The notes beneath the pieces are model-generated. The model worked only from the letters and a program-made list of their open reading frames with translations. It made no database searches and had not been told where the DNA came from. The position numbers and the translations under genes are program-made. From positions 1 to 10,929 of the forward strand of contig CAMCPC010000022.1 of assembly GCA_945876665.1 (NCBI GenBank): a stretch of DNA of 10,929 nucleotides, written 5' to 3'. The stretch is from an uncultured Oscillospiraceae bacterium (lineage in GTDB: Bacteria > Bacillota > Clostridia > UBA1381). Below are positions 932 to 10,929 of this stretch, piece after piece; position 1 is the stretch's first letter, and the number at the start of each line of letters is the position of its first letter.

Positions 932-1855
932 TCACTCACTGCCGCAGTAAATAATATCCTCCAATTCTTCAAGGGAAAATCCCTGTTCATACAATTCCTG
1001 TATTACCTCCGGGTCTTCGCCGTACATTGCGGCAACGGTCTTTATATCTTCAAGATACTGCTCACCGTATACATCTTTTTCACCGTATATGTAACTGTAC
1101 CCAAAATCATACCAATGCGGACTGCTCGAATATGTATAGTTAAATCTGCCCTTTTCCGTCTTTCCGTTACTTGTGATTTTCAGAATATCTCCCTCTTTGA
1201 GTTCAAGCTGTTCATAATTGCCCGCCTGTAAATCATCAAATAGCTCTGAATCAATAAGCGCTCTCCAAAGTATTCTCTCAGTAGACGCAAACACATACAC
1301 TCCTATTTTTCTGAAATGCAGAATACTTATCGGACTATCGCCTTTTACAAGATAAATATTATTCTTGTTATCCAGTATATTAAAGCTGAAACTGCCGTCT
1401 ATTTCCTCCGCCATGAATTTTATACTGTCAAAGTCAAGTATATTCTTCATTTTCAACAGTTGCACCGCTACAAAGGAGTCAGTCTGTATTCTGCTCTTGA
1501 ATTTATATTTCTTCTGAATTTCCGCATCATTCATCAGCACACCGTTATGCGCCAGCGCAAACTGACAGTTCTTCACCGTTTCGCTCCACGGATGGTTATT
1601 ATAATTCTTACTCTTGTCGCCCTGCGTACTGTGTCTTGTATGACCTATAACAGCATTGATAAACTTCGGCACATTTGTCTTAAAGTGGTACGCGCTGACC
1701 GCCTGTTTGTTTATTTTTATTTTTCCCGAACTCACATATGCAATACCAGTTGCATCCGTACCGCGTTCTGCGCTTTCCTCTGCCAGAGAATTTACAAGCT
1801 CGTCCATATCCTTCAGTTTATTTTTATAGCTTAATACTCCAAAAATTCCGCACAT
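932..1855 (-). CDS. Stand-alone class-II glutamine amidotransferase (glutaminase domain)
   Basis: Cytoplasmic Ntn-type glutaminase, predicted to release ammonia from glutamine for the neighbouring amidoligase. Visible motifs: N-terminal MCGIFGVLS with catalytic Cys2 (exposed after Met removal), RGTDATG at 31-37, GHTRHSTQGD at 71-80 with the substrate-binding Arg74, AHNGVLMND at 102-110 with the oxyanion-hole Asn104-Gly105, and QTDS at 124-127. These match GlmS/PurF-type GATase_2 domains. At 307 residues it lacks the sugar-isomerase domains of GlmS and the synthetase domain of AsnB, so the acceptor half must be another protein. The C-terminal 70 residues are Tyr- and Glu-rich and not recognised. 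It starts 2 bases after the amidoligase stop, and its SD lies inside the end of that gene. The family is clear; the partner role is inference from context. Confidence 0.88.
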   Translation of the reverse strand: MCGIFGVLSYKNKLKDMDELVNSLAEESAERGTDATGIAYVSSGKIKINKQAVSAYHFKTNVPKFINAVIGHTRHSTQGDKSKNYNNHPWSETVKNCQFALAHNGVLMNDAEIQKKYKFKSRIQTDSFVAVQLLKMKNILDFDSIKFMAEEIDGSFSFNILDNKNNIYLVKGDSPISILHFRKIGVYVFASTERILWRALIDSELFDDLQAGNYEQLELKEGDILKITSNGKTEKGRFNYTYSSSPHWYDFGYSYIYGEKDVYGEQYLEDIKTVAAMYGEDPEVIQELYEQGFSLEELEDIIYCGSE

Positions 1856-1857
1856 AA

Positions 1858-2970
1858 TCAGACCTCCTCATTTGCTGTTACCGGTTCATTTACATATAGC
1901 CGTTTTGCCTTCAGATAATCAATGAGCTCCTGTTTATCCGATGTAATACGCTGCACAAAATCAAGCCATGTAAGATTTTGAAGCTCCTCATCAGACAAAG
2001 AAACAGCGACATCACAGATTTCGTCTACCATCTGTAATGTCGCTGCAAATGTGCTGTACTTTAGTGTACCTCTGAATATTCTCATTTCAACTGTATTTTC
2101 ATTTTCAAGATTGACCGCCACATATCGTCCAAGGCATGAGTTTTTGGCGTGTTTTAATGTTTCTTTGGGATTTATAAGCCCGCCGCCGTAGCGTCTTGCC
2201 CATCTGTTAGCCTGTCCTTCTGTGCGGCGGCTGAATTTAAGGATTTCATTCCAGAACTTTTCATAGAAATACAGGATTTTGGCTATCGTGGCTTCCTGCT
2301 CCTCATATGTGTCTCCTAAACCCTTTCTGCTGATATGTACATGCAAACCACATGTACGCGCCTGATGACTCCGGTATTCGAGCTCAATTGCTTTCTGCAT
2401 AATCTTCTGCCACGGCATATTATGCAAATGATAATCCAGTGTCATCGGGTGTGACACCATTTCGAAGCCGTCATCAAGAGAACCATCGTGCTTAATATAC
2501 ATATGATTGTTCGTATTATTGGCAACACCTAATATTTTTTCGGCACAACAATCACATTCCCCGCTTTCATCAATTTCAAGCTCCACACCGTAATACCGCC
2601 CGCCTGTTCCATAAAAAATCGGTTCGGGCTTGTAGTAATAATCATGGATTATCTGATCGTCCTCATGTTCGTGATAACAGTCATGGCAATATGGATACTC
2701 CCTGTCATAATCGTCACCACGATAATACGCTTCATCAAGACTTATTACTCTGTCACAGCCATCGCATCGTGTGTAATACGTTTCATAACATCCTTCGCAT
2801 AAGTCATCGTCTACTGTATCATCCACCAGTACCCTTTCACCGCAATGCCGGCATGTCACTGTTCCCAATTCAAAACAGTCCTGACACATATGCATTCCAT
2901 TTACTACATGCTCCTCTGACGGCTCATATTCATTACCGCAGATTTCACAAATTAATTTTGTTTCTTTCAT
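1858..2970 (-). CDS. Amidoligase (PF12224-like) with N-terminal zinc ribbons
   Basis: Predicted ATP-dependent amide-bond-forming enzyme of the Amidoligase_2 family, a COOH-NH2 ligase group known mainly from genome context; substrates are not established. Residues 8-98 carry six CxxC pairs (8/11, 29/32, 40/43, 58/61, 69/72, 95/98), enough for about three zinc sites. The catalytic part has GVELEID at 128-134, then HDGSL and GFEMVSHPM, then CGLHVHIS with the HxH pair, and near the C-terminus TVEMRIFRGTL, all typical of the family. Start: ATG 2970 is preceded by AGGAGG (2985-2980) that overlaps the stop of the upstream gene. The frame is open further, to 3024, but has no SD there. It sits between a DUF960-like gene and a glutaminase gene. 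The zinc ribbons may bind the target protein or nucleic acid (inference). Confidence 0.87.
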   Translation of the reverse strand: MKETKLICEICGNEYEPSEEHVVNGMHMCQDCFELGTVTCRHCGERVLVDDTVDDDLCEGCYETYYTRCDGCDRVISLDEAYYRGDDYDREYPYCHDCYHEHEDDQIIHDYYYKPEPIFYGTGGRYYGVELEIDESGECDCCAEKILGVANNTNNHMYIKHDGSLDDGFEMVSHPMTLDYHLHNMPWQKIMQKAIELEYRSHQARTCGLHVHISRKGLGDTYEEQEATIAKILYFYEKFWNEILKFSRRTEGQANRWARRYGGGLINPKETLKHAKNSCLGRYVAVNLENENTVEMRIFRGTLKYSTFAATLQMVDEICDVAVSLSDEELQNLTWLDFVQRITSDKQELIDYLKAKRLYVNEPVTANEEV

Positions 2971-2983
2971 TTTGAGATTCCTC

Positions 2984-3271
2984 CTAATATTCGTAATTAA
3001 ATAACATTGTGCAGTGTGTTTCATCGTCTATCACAAAAATCTTTGCATTTAAAAAAGGAACATCTGTTTTTATCAGATATTCCCTCTTATATTCCGGCTC
3101 TTCTTGTGAATGGACAATTTTCTGTATTCCATTTTCCTCTGACAATTCAAATACCTGAAGATAATCCTTCCTGACTTCCATCATGTCAATCAGATTCCAC
3201 ATGATAGCCTGCAGAACTATCGGGACGTTCTCTGATACTCCTCTTGTTGCCAGACGTTTTCCATTAAACAT
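2984..3271 (-). CDS. DUF960-like small protein, first gene of the amidoligase operon
   Basis: A 95-residue protein starting MFNGKRLATRGVSE and containing a run like VLQAIMWNLIDMM, KDYLQVFEL and KIVHSQEEPEY. From memory these resemble DUF960 (PF06124), a family of unknown function found in Firmicutes and their mobile elements; this was not tested by search. No signal peptide, membrane segment or catalytic motif is visible. ATG 3271 is chosen because AGGAGG lies at 3285-3280 with an 8-base spacer. The frame extends to a TTG at 3319 that has no SD. Its stop codon overlaps the SD of the amidoligase gene, so the two are probably translationally coupled. It may be an accessory or substrate-recognition subunit of the amidoligase pathway (inference). 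Confidence 0.7.
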   Translation of the reverse strand: MFNGKRLATRGVSENVPIVLQAIMWNLIDMMEVRKDYLQVFELSEENGIQKIVHSQEEPEYKREYLIKTDVPFLNAKIFVIDDETHCTMLFNYEY

Positions 3272-3354
3272 ATTTTTCACCTCCTGCTTTATATTCAAAT
3301 GAATAATATATTTACACAAAAGTAGACTTTGCGCTCGAAATTATATATTATTTT

Positions 3355-3526: not shown

Positions 3527-3549
3527 AGGGTGATTTTATCAATCACCCT
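3527..3549 (+). terminator. Hairpin after the two small ORFs, probable terminator
   Basis: AGGGTGATT (3527-3535) and AATCACCCT (3541-3549) form a perfect 9-bp stem with a 5-base loop. On the plus strand it is followed by TCCAC and then seven T residues (3554-3560), slightly distant for a classic terminator. The stem starts 3 bases after the stop of the 24-codon ORF and contains the last codons and stop of the convergent rep gene. Confidence 0.55.
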
Positions 3550-4592
3550 TCCACTTTTTTTGCATCAGCATATTTTAAGCAAAGGTCAAGAATATTTGTC
3601 CCTGACTTAATACTTGATCTGCATGGCAAAGGCATAGGTGCAATATCAAGACTGTATAATTTTTTTATAATATTGATAGGCTTTAATATTGGTTCTTTAA
3701 TCACTGCGTTACTAATGCCTTTATGCTTTGAAGCTGCAGAAATAAAATCAATCATCCTTTTTTTTGTTTTTCTTTTGAACGGAGATTGCTCAATAAATTC
3801 TCTTATTTCATACAAATAGTAGTAATTATTACTAAACCCAAGCGATTTCATTTGATGTTCAAAAACATATGTACCCACTTCCGGCAATTTATCAAAAAAA
3901 TCAGCTATATCTGTCAGCTGAAACTTTCGTTTTAGAAAGTCAATATAATTCTTAAAACATCTCGCTTCGCATCTTAAAATATTAGGGTACTTTTTGACCT
4001 GAATATCTTCTGTCAGAATTTGGTGCAATTTATTGTAAAATGAAAGCTCTACATAGTTATATCTTGTAAATGTGGCTTCTTCCTTTGGCACCACGTATCT
4101 TCCTGCACGTTTATCTTTAATAAATTTCTGATGGTATTTTATATTGGGAATGTACGATTGATTAATTTGTTTTATCCATTCTTTAACCTGCGTTTCCGAT
4201 CCCAAAATTATATTCGAACAGAAATCCAATCTTACTAAATGGCATTCATTTAGTAATGGTAAATATGATGATATTGTTTTCAACAAATCATTCACTTGCG
4301 GTATTATTTTGTAAGCATCATTGGCATGGAACACATTCAAATAATCTCCGCCATCAAAACACCGCGTAGGATTAATCCTATAGTTAATATGAACCACATA
4401 ATGTTTTTCATCAATATTAACTCGATATAAATAAATAAGTATCCCTCTTCCCTTTAGTCCATCAAATTTTTTCCTATTCTCATTGTGCTTGTCGGGGTAA
4501 TAAAGTGATTTATACTGCACAAAATCATTGTGTACATTTTTATATTCATAATCCTTTAATGTACATCCGACTTCAAAAGTATGTAAATTCAT
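3543..4592 (-). CDS. Putative phage/plasmid-type replication initiation protein
   Basis: A 349-residue soluble protein that by eye resembles plasmid/phage replication initiators of the gene II/X or Rep_trans kind, which nick an origin strand to start rolling-circle replication. Supporting motifs are HLVRLDFCSN with R121 and D123, VELSFYNK at 181-188 (compare the YNK motif of Rep proteins), and ILRCEARCFK at 205-214 (compare LR.E.R). The last 100 residues are Lys-rich and helical. No HUH motif is obvious, and the catalytic tyrosine cannot be named with confidence. ATG 4592 has AAAGGAGC upstream. The gene stands alone on this strand, upstream of the HTH-integrase block, as in many integrative mobilizable elements. 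The spacer before it (4593-4854) holds inverted repeats that could be an origin or operator. Confidence 0.5.
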   Translation of the reverse strand: MNLHTFEVGCTLKDYEYKNVHNDFVQYKSLYYPDKHNENRKKFDGLKGRGILIYLYRVNIDEKHYVVHINYRINPTRCFDGGDYLNVFHANDAYKIIPQVNDLLKTISSYLPLLNECHLVRLDFCSNIILGSETQVKEWIKQINQSYIPNIKYHQKFIKDKRAGRYVVPKEEATFTRYNYVELSFYNKLHQILTEDIQVKKYPNILRCEARCFKNYIDFLKRKFQLTDIADFFDKLPEVGTYVFEHQMKSLGFSNNYYYLYEIREFIEQSPFKRKTKKRMIDFISAASKHKGISNAVIKEPILKPINIIKKLYSLDIAPMPLPCRSSIKSGTNILDLCLKYADAKKVEG

Positions 4593-5081: not shown

Positions 5082-6239
5082 TTACAGCCCCTTCATTGCA
5101 TCTCTCAACTGATCTATGCTTTCATGCACATAGGTGTCATATGTAATCTGCACCCCCGAATGTCCCAACAGTCTGCTTATAAGCTTCACATCCACACAAT
5201 TATCAAATAGCCAGGATGCGAAGCTATGACGCAATATATGTACTCCGCTCGCTTCAATACCTGCTGCTTTATAAATAGCATTAACAGATTTAGCAAGGTT
5301 GTGAGGCGATAGATGTGTATCTTTGTCAGTGGTGAATATAAAATCTTCATCATCGCCACGATAATATAAATCCCTATGTTTCGAGATAGCTTCAAATGCT
5401 TTATCACAAAGCGGAATGATTCTCATACCCGATGCCGTCTTGACTGTCTTTTGTATAACAAGCGAACGATGTTTACCGCCGCTGCCGTCAGTAACAGAGA
5501 CTAAGTTCTGTTCGACTGTGACGGTTTTGTTTTTAAAGTCTATGTGCCGGTACTGTAATGCCAATGCCTCGCCTACTCTAAGTCCCGTAAATAGAATAAA
5601 TACCGCCCCGAACCCATATCGATAGCGGTACTCGTCAACACCTGTATATTTAGATGTTGCTATTTTGGTAAACAGATCCATTTCTTCTGCTGTAAGCGCT
5701 TTCTTCTGCTTCATCTCAAACTCTGATACAGGCGGAAGCCTGACTGCCGTAACAGGATTATAGCTAAGCTGTCTTTCAATAATGAGTTGATTAAAATATC
5801 CGTTTAGTGCTTCCTTTGCTTTCTTAATACTGCTGCGTGATAAGCCCTTATTCTTTAGAATTGTTATCATCTGCTGAATTTCATCTGATGTGATTGTCTT
5901 TACGTAATCATTGCCAAGGTATGGTATTACATTCCACTCAACCGTCTGCACAAGCCGGTCATAACTGGCCGGCTTAAGAAATGGTTTTTTGTGTGTTTGA
6001 AGCCACAGTTCCATTCCTTCAGCAAGCAGACAATCGGCTTGCTGGATTGATGCAAGATTTGCCTGTTCTTTCTTATAGCTACTCATTTTCTTACGTACTT
6101 CTGTAACTGTCTTACCGCTGAATGTTTTAATTTTGGGCTTACCATTCGGATTCTTGCCAATTTGCAGTCTTCCTATGTATTTTCCATTTCCACGGGGGTC
6201 TGAAATTATACATCCCTCGCCATTGCCTCGTTTACTCAT
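5082..6239 (-). CDS. int: Tyrosine recombinase / integrase (Tn916- and phage-type)
   Basis: A 385-residue site-specific integrase that cuts and rejoins attachment sites through a covalent tyrosine link. The N-terminal 55 residues (GNGEGCI, KYIGRLQIGKNPNGKPK) match the arm-type DNA-binding domain. About 70-155 is the SAM-like core-binding domain. The catalytic domain shows TGLRVGEAL with Arg221, HILRHSFAS with His334 and Arg337, LLGHSG with His360, and the nucleophile Tyr370 in YDTYVH. All required residues are present, so the enzyme looks active. Start ATG 6239 has AGGAGG at 6254-6249. It follows the excisionase-like gene after 60 bases, the standard xis-int order, and is terminated by the hairpin at 5025-5062. 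TGTATTACA overlaps its stop codon. Confidence 0.93.
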   Translation of the reverse strand: MSKRGNGEGCIISDPRGNGKYIGRLQIGKNPNGKPKIKTFSGKTVTEVRKKMSSYKKEQANLASIQQADCLLAEGMELWLQTHKKPFLKPASYDRLVQTVEWNVIPYLGNDYVKTITSDEIQQMITILKNKGLSRSSIKKAKEALNGYFNQLIIERQLSYNPVTAVRLPPVSEFEMKQKKALTAEEMDLFTKIATSKYTGVDEYRYRYGFGAVFILFTGLRVGEALALQYRHIDFKNKTVTVEQNLVSVTDGSGGKHRSLVIQKTVKTASGMRIIPLCDKAFEAISKHRDLYYRGDDEDFIFTTDKDTHLSPHNLAKSVNAIYKAAGIEASGVHILRHSFASWLFDNCVDVKLISRLLGHSGVQITYDTYVHESIDQLRDAMKGL

Positions 6240-6259: not shown

Positions 6260-6306
6260 TGTAATACTTGAATATAATGTATAATTGAGCGCAAATGTAT
6301 TACTTG
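6260..6306. repeat. Direct repeat TGTAWTACTTG between xis and int
   Basis: TGTAATACTTG (6260-6270) and TGTATTACTTG (6296-6306) differ at one base and are 36 bases apart. The second covers the last codons of the excisionase gene. The 8-base core TGTAWTAC also occurs at 5078 over the int stop and twice at 10320-10339. These could be integrase or excisionase binding sites; this is inference from position. Confidence 0.35.
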
Positions 6307-6503
6307 TATCTGTATGCCTGTTGCTCTTGTCTGTCAAGCCACTTTGTCAGCGCCTTCTTTTGTACCACATAACGGCGCATAATCTTAAATGCAGGAAACC
6401 CTTTCTTCCGCATCAGACGGTATGCCGCCGCGCGACTAATTTCAAACAGATCCATTATTTCCTCTGTCTCCAGCAACTCTGGAAACTCACTTAAATTTTT
6501 CAT
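6300..6503 (-). CDS. xis: Excisionase-like HTH protein upstream of integrase (67 aa)
   Basis: A small HTH_17/Xis-type DNA-binding protein, likely the recombination directionality factor that bends the attachment site and favours excision by the integrase. Residues 11-31 (LETEEIMDLFEISRAAAYRL) form the helix-turn-helix. FPAFKIMRRYVVQKKAL at 36-52 is the wing and following helix. Length is typical for the family. ATG 6503 has a strong AAGGAGG SD (6518-6512). The gene lies 60 bases upstream of int on the same strand, so the two are probably cotranscribed. A perfect 9-bp hairpin (6515-6537) covers part of the SD, so translation could be regulated. A role as transcriptional regulator of the divergent 6621 gene is an alternative. 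Confidence 0.8.
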   Translation of the reverse strand: MKNLSEFPELLETEEIMDLFEISRAAAYRLMRKKGFPAFKIMRRYVVQKKALTKWLDRQEQQAYRYK

Positions 6504-6514
6504 TAAACTTTCCT

Positions 6515-6537
6515 CCTTTTTCTGAATTAGAAAAAGG
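6515..6537 (-). promoter_or_regulatory. Hairpin masking part of the excisionase SD
   Basis: CCTTTTTCT (6515-6523) and AGAAAAAGG (6529-6537) form a perfect 9-bp stem with a 5-base loop. On the xis mRNA the 3' arm of this stem includes the first four bases of AAGGAGG (6518-6512). It could limit ribosome loading on xis, as expected where excision must be kept low. No T-run follows, so it is not a terminator. Confidence 0.4.
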
Positions 6538-6620: not shown

Positions 6621-8687
6621 ATGGGACATAAACTCAAAATAACCGATATAATACGGCTTCCGGGTCCGCCAAGATTTATTGCTGTGTTGGAATCCAAAAA
6701 CAAAGATTTTGCGCCTTTATGCACTATAACTAAGAAATACCGAATAAGATATCGCATGTCAAATTCTTTCAAAAAATTTAAGTACAATAAGATTAACGAT
6801 GTTTTCCACAAAAATTATGATAATGACAATAAGATTGACGATATTTTTAACAAAATTTATGATTCGGAAGAGGACAGAGACTTACAATTTAAATATGCAG
6901 AAGAAGAGATATTTTCAGAGTTGAATTTAGATTTAAACAAATTAAAAAAAAGGATACGAAAAATGTATACTGACTCCTATATCAGTTATGACGCATACAA
7001 AACTGGTGATCGAACCATGACACCATTTACTAGCGGATACATTTATGAGTATGGAATTGTTAAATATTATCTTATCAGCCAAATTTATGACCTGCCCGAA
7101 AATTTTGAAAATCAATTTGCATTTTTACCCGAAAATAACTTAAAGTTTGAAAGAAGGTATGAAGAATATTTAAATCAATGTATAAGAAAAATTAATAAAT
7201 TTATAATACATAATCCTATATCTTTACCTATTTTTTCATACACTCTTCTTGCATTAACAGAGAATGTTCTCAACTACTATTATACCGAAGATACAAGTTT
7301 TTCTCTTTGGGTTCATTCATCTGAATATAAAAATGCACGCAATACCGCAAATCTTTTTTCTAACATGTTTACATACAAACCGCAGAGTATATATAATTAT
7401 CATAAGTTCCATATAAACATATCTGCAAAAACATGTGACTTAGATGATTATATATATACATTTAATGATTTGCCACTTATAATATACTCAAATTCTCATA
7501 AACACACGCTCTCTTCAAGCAAAGTACAAGCAATTATTGACAAGAAGTACAGTAACATAATAACATTTTCCCCTGTATTTATATCGTCTTCATCTAATAA
7601 TTCGAACAAAGTTCTTAATATTAGGGCTGATAAATTAGTCTATGAAGATGATTTTGAGACAATAAAGAACAATCTCAACATTGTATATCACGAATTTATA
7701 TGTTTCATATGCCAGCTTAAAAACACTGATAAACAATATATGCTAAATGACATTATTCCTGAATTTTTAACCTCTGAATTTCATGAACGCATACAAGCTG
7801 AATTTCAAAGCAAAGAGGCATTTCCTTTTTTTAATCACTTCTCCATAACTATGGAACATATATATCAAGAAATACCTCTACGGTTTGAAACGATAGCAGA
7901 TGAAATACTCAGTGTCAGAAACGATATTATTAAATGTCTCCCAAAATATATGCGGGAAGATTTAAATATAGATCCGACTTTAGTATATATAAAAAAAAGT
8001 AACCGTCATAAAAAAATACTAAGTATTCAGTTTCCTATGCTATCCCGCGAAGATCAAAAATGGAATGATTTTGATGAATATATTTTTTCTGACAAATTCT
8101 TTAAATACCTCACTGATGTACTCAAAGCAATGAAAAGGTTACAAAAGAGAGTCTGCTTCTTATTATATATCTACAAGCTTTGTATTGCCCTTGGTTATTA
8201 TGATAAATTTATGTCTAATAATAACCTTGCTAACGAAGAAATTAAAACATTCATGTGTTTTTCTTACAAAGCGCTGAATAAACTGTTGCACAAACAACCT
8301 TTGATAAGCATTGCTGAGAAACAAGCAGTATCAAAACTTAATGACGATGTAACAATTTTTATTGAACAACTCAAAAAGACTGTCCATAAACATCTCGGTG
8401 ATATTCCTCCGGCAACTGTCATCAAATCTAAATACCGCATATCTCCTGGTATGGAATGTAATGTTTATGAAGTTGACAGAAATTTAATCAAAGAGCTTCT
8501 AAATAATCACATTACAACTCCAGAAAGGAAATTTCTAAATGAATTAGCACATCGCGATATACTAATTAGGAATGATAAAATACCCAAGCAAACACGCTTT
8601 GTATTTCAGCGAACAGTCAAATCGAAACCTTATTACTTTTACATAATACGAGAAGATTCTTTATTGCCAAAAGATAATAAGCTTTGA
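6621..8687 (+). CDS. Large unknown protein, possible degenerate DUF927-like ATPase
   Basis: A 688-residue soluble protein with no signal or membrane segment. It is not recognised outright, but residues 226-330 follow the order seen in DUF927-like phage/plasmid helicases. FSLWVHSSEYKNARNTANLF at 227-246 stands where FSLWxxGPxGSGKTxxAxLF is expected. LPLIIYSNS at 284-292 takes the place of a Walker B strand ending in DD. NIITFSPVFISSSS at 312-325 resembles the sensor-1 strand. The Walker A Lys and Thr are Ala239 and Arg240, and the Walker B acids are Tyr289-Ser290, so ATP hydrolysis is unlikely if the alignment holds. Residues about 625-680 (LLNNHITTPERKFLNELAHR and on) look like a C-terminal winged helix. 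ATG 6621 follows GAGAGGTGA. It is more AT-rich than int, suggesting separate acquisition. Function unknown. Confidence 0.7.
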   Translation: MGHKLKITDIIRLPGPPRFIAVLESKNKDFAPLCTITKKYRIRYRMSNSFKKFKYNKINDVFHKNYDNDNKIDDIFNKIYDSEEDRDLQFKYAEEEIFSELNLDLNKLKKRIRKMYTDSYISYDAYKTGDRTMTPFTSGYIYEYGIVKYYLISQIYDLPENFENQFAFLPENNLKFERRYEEYLNQCIRKINKFIIHNPISLPIFSYTLLALTENVLNYYYTEDTSFSLWVHSSEYKNARNTANLFSNMFTYKPQSIYNYHKFHINISAKTCDLDDYIYTFNDLPLIIYSNSHKHTLSSSKVQAIIDKKYSNIITFSPVFISSSSNNSNKVLNIRADKLVYEDDFETIKNNLNIVYHEFICFICQLKNTDKQYMLNDIIPEFLTSEFHERIQAEFQSKEAFPFFNHFSITMEHIYQEIPLRFETIADEILSVRNDIIKCLPKYMREDLNIDPTLVYIKKSNRHKKILSIQFPMLSREDQKWNDFDEYIFSDKFFKYLTDVLKAMKRLQKRVCFLLYIYKLCIALGYYDKFMSNNNLANEEIKTFMCFSYKALNKLLHKQPLISIAEKQAVSKLNDDVTIFIEQLKKTVHKHLGDIPPATVIKSKYRISPGMECNVYEVDRNLIKELLNNHITTPERKFLNELAHRDILIRNDKIPKQTRFVFQRTVKSKPYYFYIIREDSLLPKDNKL
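6789..6872 (+). repeat. In-frame 42-bp tandem duplication inside the 688-aa gene
   Basis: Units 6789-6830 and 6831-6872 match at 28 of their first 33 bases and then diverge. They encode KINDVFHKNYDNDN (57-70) and KIDDIFNKIYDSEE (71-84). The unit is a charged helical segment, kept in frame, so the protein appears to be under selection rather than decaying. Confidence 0.6.
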
Positions 8688-8729
8688 TTGAATGTAATTA
8701 TTTAAAGGTTAGATAACTAATAAAATTTT

Positions 8730-8754
8730 AGTGTTATGTTTATTTCATAATACT
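8730..8754 (+). terminator. Weak hairpin after the 688-aa gene
   Basis: AGTGTTATG (8730-8738) and CATAATACT (8746-8754) form a 9-bp stem with one G-U pair and a 7-base loop, 43 bases after the stop. No T-run follows, so it may only slow or partly stop transcription. The rest of the 8688-8880 spacer shows nothing definite. Confidence 0.25.
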
Positions 8755-8888
8755 TATAGAAGATTTTGTATTATCCACTCAAATCTTTAGGGGATCATAG
8801 AAAATATGCAATACGGTATCTATATAATAGAAATTATTTTTATGTAAATTTTTTAAATATTTTGTATATTTGTATACTATAAGTACAT

Positions 8889-8941
8889 ATATTATTCAAA
8901 ATAGAATAATATAAATATTATATTCTTTACAGAATAATATT
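8889..8941. repeat. AATATTATTC/GAATAATATT inverted repeats, likely operator
   Basis: Two adjacent inverted repeats. ATATTATTC (8889-8897) faces GAATAATAT (8904-8912), a perfect 9-bp pair. AATATTATATTC (8914-8925) faces GAATAATATT (8932-8941), with one extra base in the left arm. The 6-base gap of the second repeat (8926-8931) is exactly the -35 box TTTACA of the 8974 promoter. A protein bound here would block RNA polymerase. The 418-aa product carries a winged helix, so autoregulation is possible. Confidence 0.6.
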
Positions 8942-8954
8942 TTGGATGTATAAT
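8926..8954 (+). promoter_or_regulatory. Strong sigma-A-type promoter of the 418-aa gene
   Basis: TTTACA (8926-8931), a 17-base spacer and a consensus TATAAT (8949-8954). The predicted start near 8961 coincides with the SD GAGGTGA (8961-8967), giving a leader of about 13 bases before ATG 8974. The -35 box and spacer lie within the inverted repeats. Confidence 0.7.
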
Positions 8955-8973
8955 GTATATGAGGTGACAGATT

Positions 8974-10230
8974 ATGAATTTTAATAATGAACTTAAAAAC
9001 GAAATTTCAAATTTTATATCGGATGACAACCAAATAATGTTAATATACACTGACAATATCATGGCTGTTTCCAGATATATTAGACAACAGCCAACCAATG
9101 TTCATATGATATTTGCCAGTGAATGTGACTTACTGAATAAAAACCAGCTGTCAATGCCAAGCAATACAAAAATATGTATCATTCATAGACCTGAAAAATT
9201 AGACATAGTTTTTGATGATCTTAAAAATGTGTTATCAAAGAAAATTAAAATCATACTTGTATCATCTAGCAGAAAATTTGTATATCGATTTAGAAAATAT
9301 TTTAATATCATTCTGCGAGACTACGATTATGATTTCTCAGAATATTTCCAGTATAAAACATTAAACCTGCTGAAACAACTCTATTTATATATTCTCACAG
9401 ACGGCAGGGATATGTACCTAACTTTGTTTGATACAAACAAGAACCTCAATAAATATATAAAAGATAATATATATGCCGAAACTGGCATACTGCATGATAA
9501 ACCTATCAGAGATATTTCCTCTTGCTTTAATACTCCCGCTAATTACATAGCTGTAATGTATGCTTTAGCAAATGAATGTAGGAATTCCGGCAATATATCT
9601 AAATTTCTCGGAATGAAACAGACTACCGTCTCAAAATATCTCTCGCAGCTTCAAAGTTACGGCTTTATTGAATATGTTACGTCATTAGACGCACCTGAAA
9701 AAAGCAAAAGCGGAAAATACAAGATAATCAGCCCATATCATCATTTTTGGTTTCGGTTTATGTATGAGGATATGTATACATACGGTAATATTGAAAAGCT
9801 TAATTTTAATCTTAATAGTAACCTGCGTGCATATTTGATTGAAAATCACTTGATCGTCTACATGAAGCATATAATTGATAAAAGATTTCAAAGCCAAAAT
9901 ATATCTTATAAAGAATGGTGGAATGATGATAACCACATTGATATTGTAGGCGTATGCAATGCGAAAAAAACACTGTATATCGGTCAATATTATTGCAACC
10001 ATGTTCATTGGGATGAGTATAATGAGTTGGTATCTCTGTCGGGTAAAATAAAGGGATACGAAAAGTGGAAAAAGGTATATATAATATTTTCTTCAGCAGG
10101 ATTTGATGATGAGCTGAAAGCTGTCAGTGATGCGAATAAACATATTATTCTTCATAGCGTTTCATTTAATGAGCCACTAACAAATACCGTGATACCTCTA
10201 ATTATCGAAACAAGAAAAAAATTAAAATAA
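8974..10230 (+). CDS. Degenerate archaeal-type ATPase with winged helix and DUF234-like C-terminus
   Basis: A 418-residue protein laid out like archaeal-type AAA ATPases that end in DUF234 (PF03008). The N-terminal part has IMLIYTDNIMAVSRYI (21-36) where VIYGRRRVGKTxLI is expected, so Walker A is gone. KICIIHRPEKL (66-76) replaces a Walker B strand ending in DE. KIKIILVSSS (90-99) fits the sensor-1 strand usually read as LILCGSS. NISKFLGMKQTTVSKYLSQL at about 207-226 is the winged helix. KYKIISPYHHFWFRFMY at about 248-264 is the DUF234 signature. EWW..DDNHIDIVG keeps the nuclease Asp, but the usual GECKW is GQYYC, so Glu and Lys are lost. It probably acts as a binding protein, not an enzyme. 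ATG 8974 follows GAGGTGA. It is AT-rich like the 688-aa gene upstream. The role is unknown. Confidence 0.72.
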   Translation: MNFNNELKNEISNFISDDNQIMLIYTDNIMAVSRYIRQQPTNVHMIFASECDLLNKNQLSMPSNTKICIIHRPEKLDIVFDDLKNVLSKKIKIILVSSSRKFVYRFRKYFNIILRDYDYDFSEYFQYKTLNLLKQLYLYILTDGRDMYLTLFDTNKNLNKYIKDNIYAETGILHDKPIRDISSCFNTPANYIAVMYALANECRNSGNISKFLGMKQTTVSKYLSQLQSYGFIEYVTSLDAPEKSKSGKYKIISPYHHFWFRFMYEDMYTYGNIEKLNFNLNSNLRAYLIENHLIVYMKHIIDKRFQSQNISYKEWWNDDNHIDIVGVCNAKKTLYIGQYYCNHVHWDEYNELVSLSGKIKGYEKWKKVYIIFSSAGFDDELKAVSDANKHIILHSVSFNEPLTNTVIPLIIETRKKLK

Positions 10231-10319
10231 AGAGTTTTTATATAAAATGATACTGAAAAGGAGCACATAGTATCCAGAAATAGCCTTCATCCTAAATATG
10301 ATACTCTACTTTCCTATTT

Positions 10320-10341
10320 TGTATTACAACCTGTATTACAA
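10320..10341. repeat. Tandem direct repeat TGTATTACAA x2
   Basis: TGTATTACAA occurs at 10320-10329 and 10332-10341, a 12-base period. TGTATTACA is also found at 5078-5086 over the end of int, in the same orientation. This fits integrase or excisionase binding sites at the two ends of an element of about 5.3 kb, but a 9-base match in AT-rich DNA is weak evidence. Confidence 0.5.
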
Positions 10342-10347
10342 TTATTT

Positions 10348-10382
10348 CGTAAATAAGCGAAAATCAACGTAAATAAGTGAAA
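10348..10382. repeat. Tandem direct repeat CGTAAATAAGYGAAA x2
   Basis: CGTAAATAAGCGAAA (10348-10362) and CGTAAATAAGTGAAA (10368-10382) match at 14 of 15 bases with a 20-base period, about two helical turns. They lie directly after the TGTATTACAA pair. The spacing suggests binding of a protein to one face of the DNA, as in arm-type integrase sites, iterons or an operator. The remaining spacer 10383-10524 shows no supported gene. Confidence 0.55.
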
Positions 10383-10561: not shown

Positions 10562-10637
<76 letters not shown>

Positions 10638-10644
10638 ATAGCAG

Positions 10645-10670
10645 AAAACCACCGACAATGCGGTGGTTTT
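10645..10670. terminator. Hairpin just upstream of the tRNA gene, possible terminator
   Basis: AAAACCACCG (10645-10654) and CGGTGGTTTT (10661-10670) form a GC-rich stem with a 6-base loop, flanked by A-runs and T-runs so that it could terminate in either direction. It lies only 7 bases from the mature 5' end of the tRNA, which is an unusual place for a terminator on the tRNA strand. It may stop plus-strand transcription crossing the tRNA, or end an upstream minus-strand unit. Confidence 0.5.
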
Positions 10671-10876
10671 GTGGCAAATAACTGCAATTTTGATAAAATA
10701 CACCCCCATAAGAGAATTTGCACCCACTCGTCCAACTTTAGTTTACCATAGTACAACTGCTGTAAACTTTATTAATATGTCCTATATTCATCTAACATCT
10801 TTTTTAATAACTTCAGAAGATTCAGAAACAGAATACTGCATATATTCATATATCAACATCCAGAACGATACAAAAC

Positions 10877-10902
10877 AAAGGTGGCAGCTTAACAGCTGCC
10901 AC
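10877..10902 (-). terminator. Probable terminator of a leftward gene beyond the right edge
   Basis: GTGGCAGCT (10881-10889) and AGCTGCCAC (10894-10902) form a perfect 9-bp stem with a 4-base loop. On the minus strand it is followed by CTTTGTTTT (complement of 10872-10880). The gene it ends would lie to the right and is not visible. The 10671-10871 stretch shows no supported gene. Confidence 0.65.
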
Positions 10903-10929
10903 GCAATTTCACTTTATTTATCCAAACTA

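What the first reader, a model, noticed from the sequence alone, without database searches (positions are those of the whole stretch)
6621..10230. Two neighbouring apparent pseudo-ATPases carried next to an int-xis module
The 688-aa and 418-aa proteins each keep the order of an ATPase fold (strand before the P-loop, Walker B strand, sensor strand, winged helix) but have lost the residues needed to bind and hydrolyse ATP. They are co-oriented, similarly AT-rich, each has its own strong promoter, and they lie directly beside a complete integrase/excisionase pair. Two independent inactivations side by side, with long open frames kept, suggest selection for a non-enzymatic role such as DNA binding, decoy or regulatory complex, possibly in element control or defence. 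No known pair like this comes to mind.
Basis: partly seen in the sequence, partly recalled or inferred. Interest (0 to 1): 0.72.

Follow-up and report, generated by a model that had tools for sequence, protein, structure and literature searches.

The report
Two dead ATPases in mobile element
A small mobile DNA element of Clostridia bacteria carries, beside its integration genes, two proteins that look like worn-out ATP-burning enzymes kept for another job, one of them probably reused as a DNA-binding switch for its own gene.

Summary
The ORFs, their orientation, AT-richness and the xis-int neighbours are real. The 418-aa protein is a full-length relative of the DUF234 "archaeal ATPase" family (hhalign 99.9%, E 3e-32) that lacks Walker A, Walker B and the E-x-K of its PD-(D/E)XK nuclease. 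The same losses occur in 3 of 3 family members (this one included, 25-35% identical); 17 of 18 other relatives keep Walker A. Its winged helix is kept. Two palindromes (ATTATTCTnnnnAGAATAAT) sit in its promoter, one over the -35 box; the G018 relative has the same pair.

The 688-aa protein founds a small family (five diverged members), all without Walker motifs and all within two genes of a site-specific recombinase. Its C-terminus resembles DUF927 replication helicases (0 of 200 shuffles as good); its core match is not significant and its structure model failed.

The pair is adjacent in two distinct tRNA-Ala elements, but two other elements have the 688 gene without a 418 gene beside it. So 688 looks like element core and 418 an addition. 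Most likely, dead enzymes were reused as DNA-binding regulators or replication adaptors: a new variant of known mobile-element parts. No function was shown.

The parts
8974..10230 (+). 418-aa protein: DUF234-type ATPase-nuclease with all catalytic motifs lost
   Evidence: hhalign of 3 family members against 18 motif-bearing relatives: prob 99.9, E 2.9e-32, 380 columns; PDC-S27 E 4e-11 over residues 121-268; DUF234 E 0.0028, below its cut-off
8974..9363 (+). former P-loop ATPase domain (residues 1-130), no Walker A or B
   Evidence: G-R-R-R-V-G-K-T and D-E of the relatives absent in 3 of 3 family members; model confidence here is low
9496..9759 (+). winged helix, residues 175-262
9850..10167 (+). 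PD-(D/E)XK-like domain without E-x-K, residues 293-398
6621..8687 (+). 688-aa protein, founder of a new family, probable DUF927-type helicase relic
   Evidence: nothing above cut-off in Pfam, nothing in NCBIfam, PADLOC or PHROGs; relatives in G018, G031, G345, G763
7296..7370 (+). degenerate P-loop place, residues 226-250
   Evidence: alignment A7, read by eye: no G-K-T/S in 5 of 5 members
8298..8684 (+). C-terminal domain like that of DUF927 helicases, residues 560-688
   Evidence: hhalign score 31.3, reached by 0 of 200 column shuffles (max 14.9); three other families 13.8-16.4
8891..8910 (+). upstream palindromic operator-like site of the 418 gene
8919..8938 (+). second palindrome, overlapping the -35 box
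   Evidence: same pair in G018
8926..8954 (+). promoter of the 418 gene, TTTACA-17-TATAAT
6300..6503 (-). excisionase-like gene, HTH_17
   Evidence: PF12728 2e-10; phrog_66 1e-7
5082..6239 (-). tyrosine integrase
   Evidence: PF00589 8e-24; phrog_1
3543..4592 (-). Rep-like protein, G2P/Phage_CRI resemblance below cut-off
   Evidence: E 0.048; 50% identical to the G018 protein at the same place
10318..10382 (-). tandem repeats (TTATTTACG and TTGTAATACA) between the tRNA and the pair, possible arm-type sites
   Evidence: similar tandems in L029 at about 1288-1355
10562..10637 (-). tRNA-Ala (CGC), likely integration site
   Evidence: ARAGORN, Rfam tRNA 63 bits; same tRNA beside the G020 and G018 elements

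Best explanation
The window holds one end of a small integrative element sitting at tRNA-Ala(CGC). Two of its genes come from ATPases that have lost catalysis but are kept as DNA-binding proteins. (1) Shown at sequence level: the 418-aa protein is a DUF234-type ATPase-wHTH-nuclease whose two sets of catalytic motifs are gone in all three family members known here. (2) Inferred: it now works as a winged-helix regulator that represses its own promoter through the two palindromes, one of which covers the -35 box. (3) Partly shown: the 688-aa protein belongs to the core of a family of recombinase-bearing elements and is most likely a dead DUF927-type replication helicase. (4) Inferred: it acts with Rep and Int/Xis as a non-catalytic adaptor or regulator of excision and replication.
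For: 418: full-length profile match to 18 relatives; Walker A 17/18, Walker B 18/18, E-I-D..E-x-K 15/18 by strict pattern in those relatives, 0/3 in the family; of nine of the closest other hits, Walker A and B 9/9; wHTH and nuclease folds. Two palindromes in the same promoter in two elements; 0 of 2000 dinucleotide shuffles of either intergenic region gave two separate sites (the pattern was drawn from these sequences). Palindromes also occur in promoters of motif-bearing DUF234 genes: in 9 of 16 the best one is reached by at most 10 of 200 shuffles. 688: open frames in window/G020, G018, G345 and G763 and a 5'-cut one in G031, hosts in three families; a recombinase within two genes in 5 of 5 elements; C-terminal match to DUF927; a recombinase was found in 10 of 12 stretches around DUF927 genes. 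DUF927 helicases with recombinases are known in Bacillota elements (PMC10061031, passages read).
Against: The core (P-loop) match of the 688 family to DUF927 is not significant (19 of 200 shuffles as good), a plain HMM of DUF927 finds the 688 protein only at E 0.55, and hhalign to a D5-type helicase of a sister element gave nothing. Against P0003 alone the 418 family aligns only over residues 131-373, so the N-terminal match rests on the larger profile. Few substitutions separate window and G020: 418 gene 6 non-synonymous (one of them ATG to GTG at the start codon) and 2 synonymous codons, 688 gene 3 and 2, integrase 0 and 4; this does not show recent purifying selection, though 7 of the 8 base changes in the 418 gene lie within 44 bases. 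The operator pattern is not rare over the whole window (19 of 200 shuffles gave at least two matches), and the generic palindrome test is weak for the window alone (30 of 200). No binding or regulation was tested.
Confidence: 0.5

Rival explanations
1. Plain decay: both genes are non-functional relics that have not yet picked up stop codons.
For: Window against G020: 6 non-synonymous to 2 synonymous codons in the 418 gene and 3 to 2 in the 688 gene; a decayed 688-like fragment with stops exists in G010.
Against: Open frames of 418, 433 and 471 aa at 25-35% identity and of 688, 623, 642 and 607 aa at 20-32% are unlikely to survive such divergence without constraint; the wHTH and the promoter palindromes are kept.
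Confidence: 0.1
2. Decoy or interference: the 418 protein pairs with, or competes for the operators of, active DUF234 ATPases (PDC-S27, a candidate anti-phage gene) and so blunts a host or rival-element defence.
For: DUF234 genes are common in related genomes (28 of 150 genomes had a match to P0002, the three with pseudo members included). Motif-bearing DUF234 genes and the 418 gene both have promoter palindromes, with similar AT-rich half sites in L021/L016 by eye. PDC-S27 is a candidate defence gene; [quoted passage not shown]
Against: The window's genome (82% complete), G020 and G018 show no other DUF234 gene (one match each). The 418 operator pattern itself is not in the promoters of 17 motif-bearing genes: best 3 mismatches in two, 4 to 6 in the other 15, one of these with only 51 bases upstream.
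Confidence: 0.15
3. The 688-aa protein never was an ATPase: it is an unrelated DNA-binding replication protein with a chance resemblance.
For: No family above cut-off, useless model, core match not significant, DUF927 HMM only E 0.55, no match to solved structures.
Against: C-terminal match to DUF927 stands clear of shuffles and of three other families; the core motifs align in the same order as in DUF927 (second alignment); DUF927 genes are also found near recombinases.
Confidence: 0.3
4. Unlinked cargo: the two genes are independent passengers without joint function.
For: 688 family without a neighbouring 418 gene in G345 and G763; a gap of 286 (window) and 254 (G018) bases between the genes and a promoter of its own for the 418 gene.
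Against: Same order, orientation and similar gap in two elements whose proteins are only 25-32% identical.
Confidence: 0.35

Closest known systems
DUF234 archaeal ATPases (PF01637 + PF03008; PADLOC PDC-S27; structures 2qen, 2fna)
   Same: Full-length profile match, winged helix, FWFR segment and PD-(D/E)XK-like C-terminus.
   Different: No Walker A, Walker B or E-x-K in any of three members; two of the three known to sit in an integrative element near int-xis (the third, P0002, has no context).
DUF927 helicases of mobile elements (like SCC Cch and SaPIbov1 Rep, as PMC10061031 says)
   Same: Similar C-terminal domain, similar size, near a site-specific recombinase.
   Different: No Pfam DUF927 match in the members scanned, no Walker motifs in 5 of 5 members; core similarity not significant.
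CARF-wHTH-nuclease proteins (Card1/Can2)
   Same: Foldseek lists them first; order of a Rossmann-like domain, wHTH and nuclease (recalled).
   Different: TM-scores about 0.2 with rmsd over 20, and PADLOC CARF hits cover the wHTH region only; the DUF234 match is far stronger.
P-loop-REase genes linked with prokaryotic transposable elements (origin of CRN effectors, reviewed in PMC5289972, passages read)
   Same: ATPase plus restriction-type nuclease linked with mobile DNA.
   Different: There the nuclease is thought to act; here both halves lack their catalytic motifs.

Membership tests
DUF234 ATPases (PDC-S27) | full-length homology to the family | tested here: met
   hhalign prob 99.9, E 2.9e-32
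DUF234 ATPases (PDC-S27) | Pfam DUF234 above curated cut-off | tested here: not met
   18.5 bits, cut-off 22.5
DUF234 ATPases (PDC-S27) | Walker A and Walker B | tested here: not met
   0 of 3 family members; 17 and 18 of 18 other relatives, 9 and 9 of 9 hits
DUF234 ATPases (PDC-S27) | winged helix | tested here: met
DUF234 ATPases (PDC-S27) | PD-(D/E)XK catalytic residues | tested here: not met
   0 of 3 against 15 of 18
DUF927 helicases | Pfam DUF927 match | tested here: not met
   no hit at E up to 1 in the 688-aa protein and in two relatives, none at E up to 5 in the G345 member; the G763 member was not scanned
DUF927 helicases | P-loop core with Walker motifs | tested here: not met
   motifs absent in 5 of 5 members; core similarity reached by 19 of 200 shuffles
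DUF927 helicases | C-terminal domain | tested here: met
   reached by 0 of 200 shuffles
CARF-wHTH-nuclease proteins | CARF domain | tested here: inconclusive
   Foldseek TM about 0.2; model pLDDT 43-62 in residues 1-110 and lower up to 170
Integrative element at tRNA | integrase and excisionase near a tRNA 3' end | tested here: met
Integrative element at tRNA | second att copy at the other end | tested here: inconclusive
   no convincing repeat of the tRNA end in L029 or the window or, by exact words, L030; the window's other end lies off the contig
Integrative element at tRNA | transfer or mobilisation genes | not tested
   the contig is only 10929 bases long

The most novel reading that the evidence does not exclude
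Mobile elements have turned a complete ATPase-nuclease of a candidate defence family (PDC-S27) and a replication helicase into a matched pair of pseudoenzymes. The first keeps only its winged helix's ability to read palindromes and uses it to control the element, and perhaps to shut down or jam the active PDC-S27 genes of hosts or rival elements. The second replaces catalysis by recruitment in starting excision and replication.
Probability: 0.15. Interest if true: 0.75.

Novelty: new variant of a known kind. Interest (0 to 1): 0.48.

Why it matters
Shared loss of two active sites in one protein, in a mobile element, would be a clear natural case of an enzyme turned regulator, and it comes with a ready test: two palindromes over its own promoter. 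Promoter palindromes in many motif-bearing DUF234 genes suggest that this widespread candidate defence family is autoregulated, which could be tested at once. The 688 family puts a Walker-less protein where active helicases are known near recombinases.

Tried and rejected
Structure of the 688-aa protein: AlphaFold with two rows gave pLDDT 35 and was not searched. D5-type helicase of the sister element as ancestor: hhalign score 15.9, nothing. CARF-nuclease as the identity of the 418-aa protein: Foldseek's first rows, but TM about 0.2. Relatives in IMG/VR: four scans, none (for the 688 family, 48 for P0003, 128 for the 418 family). tblastn: 688 protein in plasmids and phages, G345 protein in plasmids, G763 protein in phages, no match; the 418 protein was not searched there. 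Marginal 688 hits in G023/G042 (frames with stops; in G023, L006, amid unrelated ORFs) and G306 (E 5.5e-4) were dropped; G010 is a decayed fragment. att repeat search failed. Rfam at E up to 1: one tRNA only. The first alignment of DUF234 proteins took wrong frames for loci on the minus strand (8 of 17 loci gave wrong or cut proteins, and in one more a different gene); it was replaced. The first DUF927 set missed seven loci for the same reason and was replaced. The places (31 in all, the window's own included) were checked for motifs only in nine. Papers: searches; two found nothing, and the titles and abstract starts listed by the others (20 of 43, 10 of 341) did not name such a pair. Of PMC5289972, PMC12988326 and PMC10061031 only passages were read; the 2016 'Transposons to toxins' paper is not held.
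Full report
Anatomy. The two ORFs (6621-8687 and 8974-10230, plus strand) lie between a tRNA-Ala(CGC) (10562-10637, minus) and a divergent xis-int pair (6300-6503 and 5082-6239, minus). Beyond int come a small HTH gene, a Rep-like gene (weak Phage_CRI resemblance), DUF960, an amidoligase and a class-II glutamine amidotransferase. The tRNA 3' end faces the pair, and repeats of the kind that integrases bind lie between them (window 10318-10382). This looks like the tRNA-side end of an integrative element; its other end was not found.

Relatives. In the genomes searched the 688-aa protein has few relatives: 5 of 101 genomes, namely the window's own, G020 (nearly identical), G018 (38% in its best piece, 32% over the alignment) and two marginal matches later dropped; G031 added with a profile (4 of 95 genomes of the order, own included); G345 in the class sample (4 of 391: own, G345, the decayed fragment of G010 and the marginal G306); G763 in the order of G345 (2 of 344, G345 included); none further in the phylum sample (1 of 388, the window's own). 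The protein search of 5.8 billion sequences returned only the protein's own cluster, with 7,992 candidates scored.

Neighbourhood. The window and G020 share the region at 99.55% over 5,597 bases, so they count as one element. G018 has the same order, tRNA-Ala, 418-like (471 aa), 688-like (623 aa), xis, int, Rep, amidoligase, amidotransferase, with proteins 25-69% identical (the amidotransferase by eye). In G031 a 5'-cut 688-family gene is convergent with a 63% identical integrase, and the contig ends on the other side. In G345 the gene lies between a large serine recombinase (named by eye) and a Rep-like gene (that gene is not significantly similar to the window's Rep; its best E with any of the Rep proteins compared is 0.055). 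In G763 it lies between a Rep gene, with xis-int behind it, and genes that look like host genes. So a recombinase lies within two genes in 5 of 5 elements, and a 418-like gene is beside it in 2 of the 4 where both neighbours could be seen; a tblastn of the 418 protein over 22 stretches matched only the window, G020 and G018. The four genomes of the order with an integrase over 60% identical (window, G020, G018, G031) all carry the 688 gene.

The promoter of the 418 gene. Aligning the 286 and 254 bases before the 418-type gene in window and G018 showed two copies of ATTATTCTnnnnAGAATAAT in each: window 8891-8910 and 8919-8938, L029 2884-2903 and 2841-2860. The near copy covers the -35 box; G018 has a perfect TTGACA-17-TATAAT there. 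No dinucleotide shuffle of 2000 gave two separate sites in either region, though the pattern was read from these sequences. Over the whole sources the pattern is less rare: 19 of 200 shuffles of the window gave two or more matches at up to 3 mismatches, 1 of 200 shuffles of L029 three or more. No other site with at most two mismatches occurs in window or L029. Motif-bearing DUF234 genes do not have this very pattern (17 promoters, best 3 mismatches), but have palindromes of their own: in 9 of 16 the best one is matched by at most 10 of 200 shuffles, several by eye over the -35 box; many of these genes are close relatives, so they are not independent. Autoregulation by the winged helix is the simplest reading.

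The 688-aa protein. No library names it. In five aligned members the place of a P-loop reads FSLWVHSSEYKN, FSLWVHSTDYKY, FSFNYYGDDLRY, FALCLYGNSNKFSYK and LPICICGINNKISPK: the strand and following helix seem kept, the G-K-T/S is gone. For comparison I took 12 of the 37 DUF927 places (11 of the 12 strongest plus the marginal G057). hhalign finds the C-terminal domain (in one search, with 11 of the 12, whole-family score 33.1 against 18.2 for the best of 60 shuffles, C-terminal part 31.3, probability 54%, against 14.9 for the best of 200), while the core alone is not significant (14.2; 19 of 200 shuffles as good) although it aligns in order. A DUF927 HMM scores the 688 protein at E 0.55. Against DUF234, integrase and Rep families the same C-terminal part scores 13.8-16.4, against full-length DUF927 29.6. 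In 10 of 12 stretches around DUF927 genes a recombinase was found by tblastn, and DUF927 or D5-type helicases beside recombinases are described for Bacillota elements, with SCC Cch and SaPIbov1 Rep as DUF927 examples (PMC10061031, passages). I therefore take the 688 protein as a probable helicase relic, at about 0.6.

How it may work. Shown at sequence level: motif loss, kept winged helix, conserved palindromes, conserved place. Inferred: the 418 protein represses its own gene; the 688 protein, transcribed away from xis (window, G018), the Rep gene (G763) or the serine recombinase (G345), but towards int in G031, tunes or assists excision and replication. A TTATTTACG motif of the presumed arm sites also lies in the xis-688 divergent region in window (6560) and L029 (4995), which hints that Int or Xis binding and 688 transcription are linked; the motif is short and common, so this is only a lead.

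Caveats. Only three 418-type and five 688-type members are known here. Recent changes between window and G020 do not show purifying selection. The window's contig may be misbinned: 292 bases beyond the tRNA are also 98% identical to G020 (6 differences), which is placed in another genus and whose neighbouring chromosome matches this genome at 70% in the best long match.

Noticed in passing
L011-L027 (promoters of motif-bearing DUF234 ATPase genes): Long inverted repeats at the promoter, several over the -35 box by eye, of many DUF234 genes, in at least three sequence types (for example TTAGTCAAGTATAAT with its complement); this candidate defence family looks autoregulated in general.
   Followed up: partly
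L045 197-1915, L047 386-1642, window 8974-10230: Elements with related integrases each carry a different ATPase-nuclease gene near int: AAA-ATPase_like with PDDEXK_9, AAA_14 with DUF4143 (PDC-S01), and the dead DUF234 protein of the window.
   Followed up: partly
L046 2312-3967: In the sister element the place of the 688 gene, divergent from xis, holds a 551-aa protein without any Pfam family above cut-off; a D5-type helicase lies on the other side of int in L047.
   Followed up: partly
window 932-3319: Amidoligase, class-II glutamine amidotransferase and DUF960 genes lie in this element; the amidoligase (tblastn) and, by eye, the amidotransferase recur in G018 and G044.
   Followed up: no
window 10638-10929 and whole contig: Flank beyond the tRNA is 98% identical to G020 of another genus; the contig may be misbinned or the region recently transferred.
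   Followed up: partly
L029 10947-15795: The G018 element, or sequence next to it, carries a 1241-aa protein that looks like a SNF2-type helicase with two smaller genes after it, the last apparently cut short; perhaps a defence cassette (named by eye, no domain search made).
   Followed up: no
window 9959-10002: Seven of the eight differences between window and G020 in the 418 gene fall within 44 bases, as if by gene conversion; P0001 differs in another patch near the N-terminus.
   Followed up: no
window 6515-6537: Palindrome CCTTTTTCTGAATTAGAAAAAGG in the xis-688 divergent region just before xis (3 to 5 of 200 shuffles as good).
   Followed up: no
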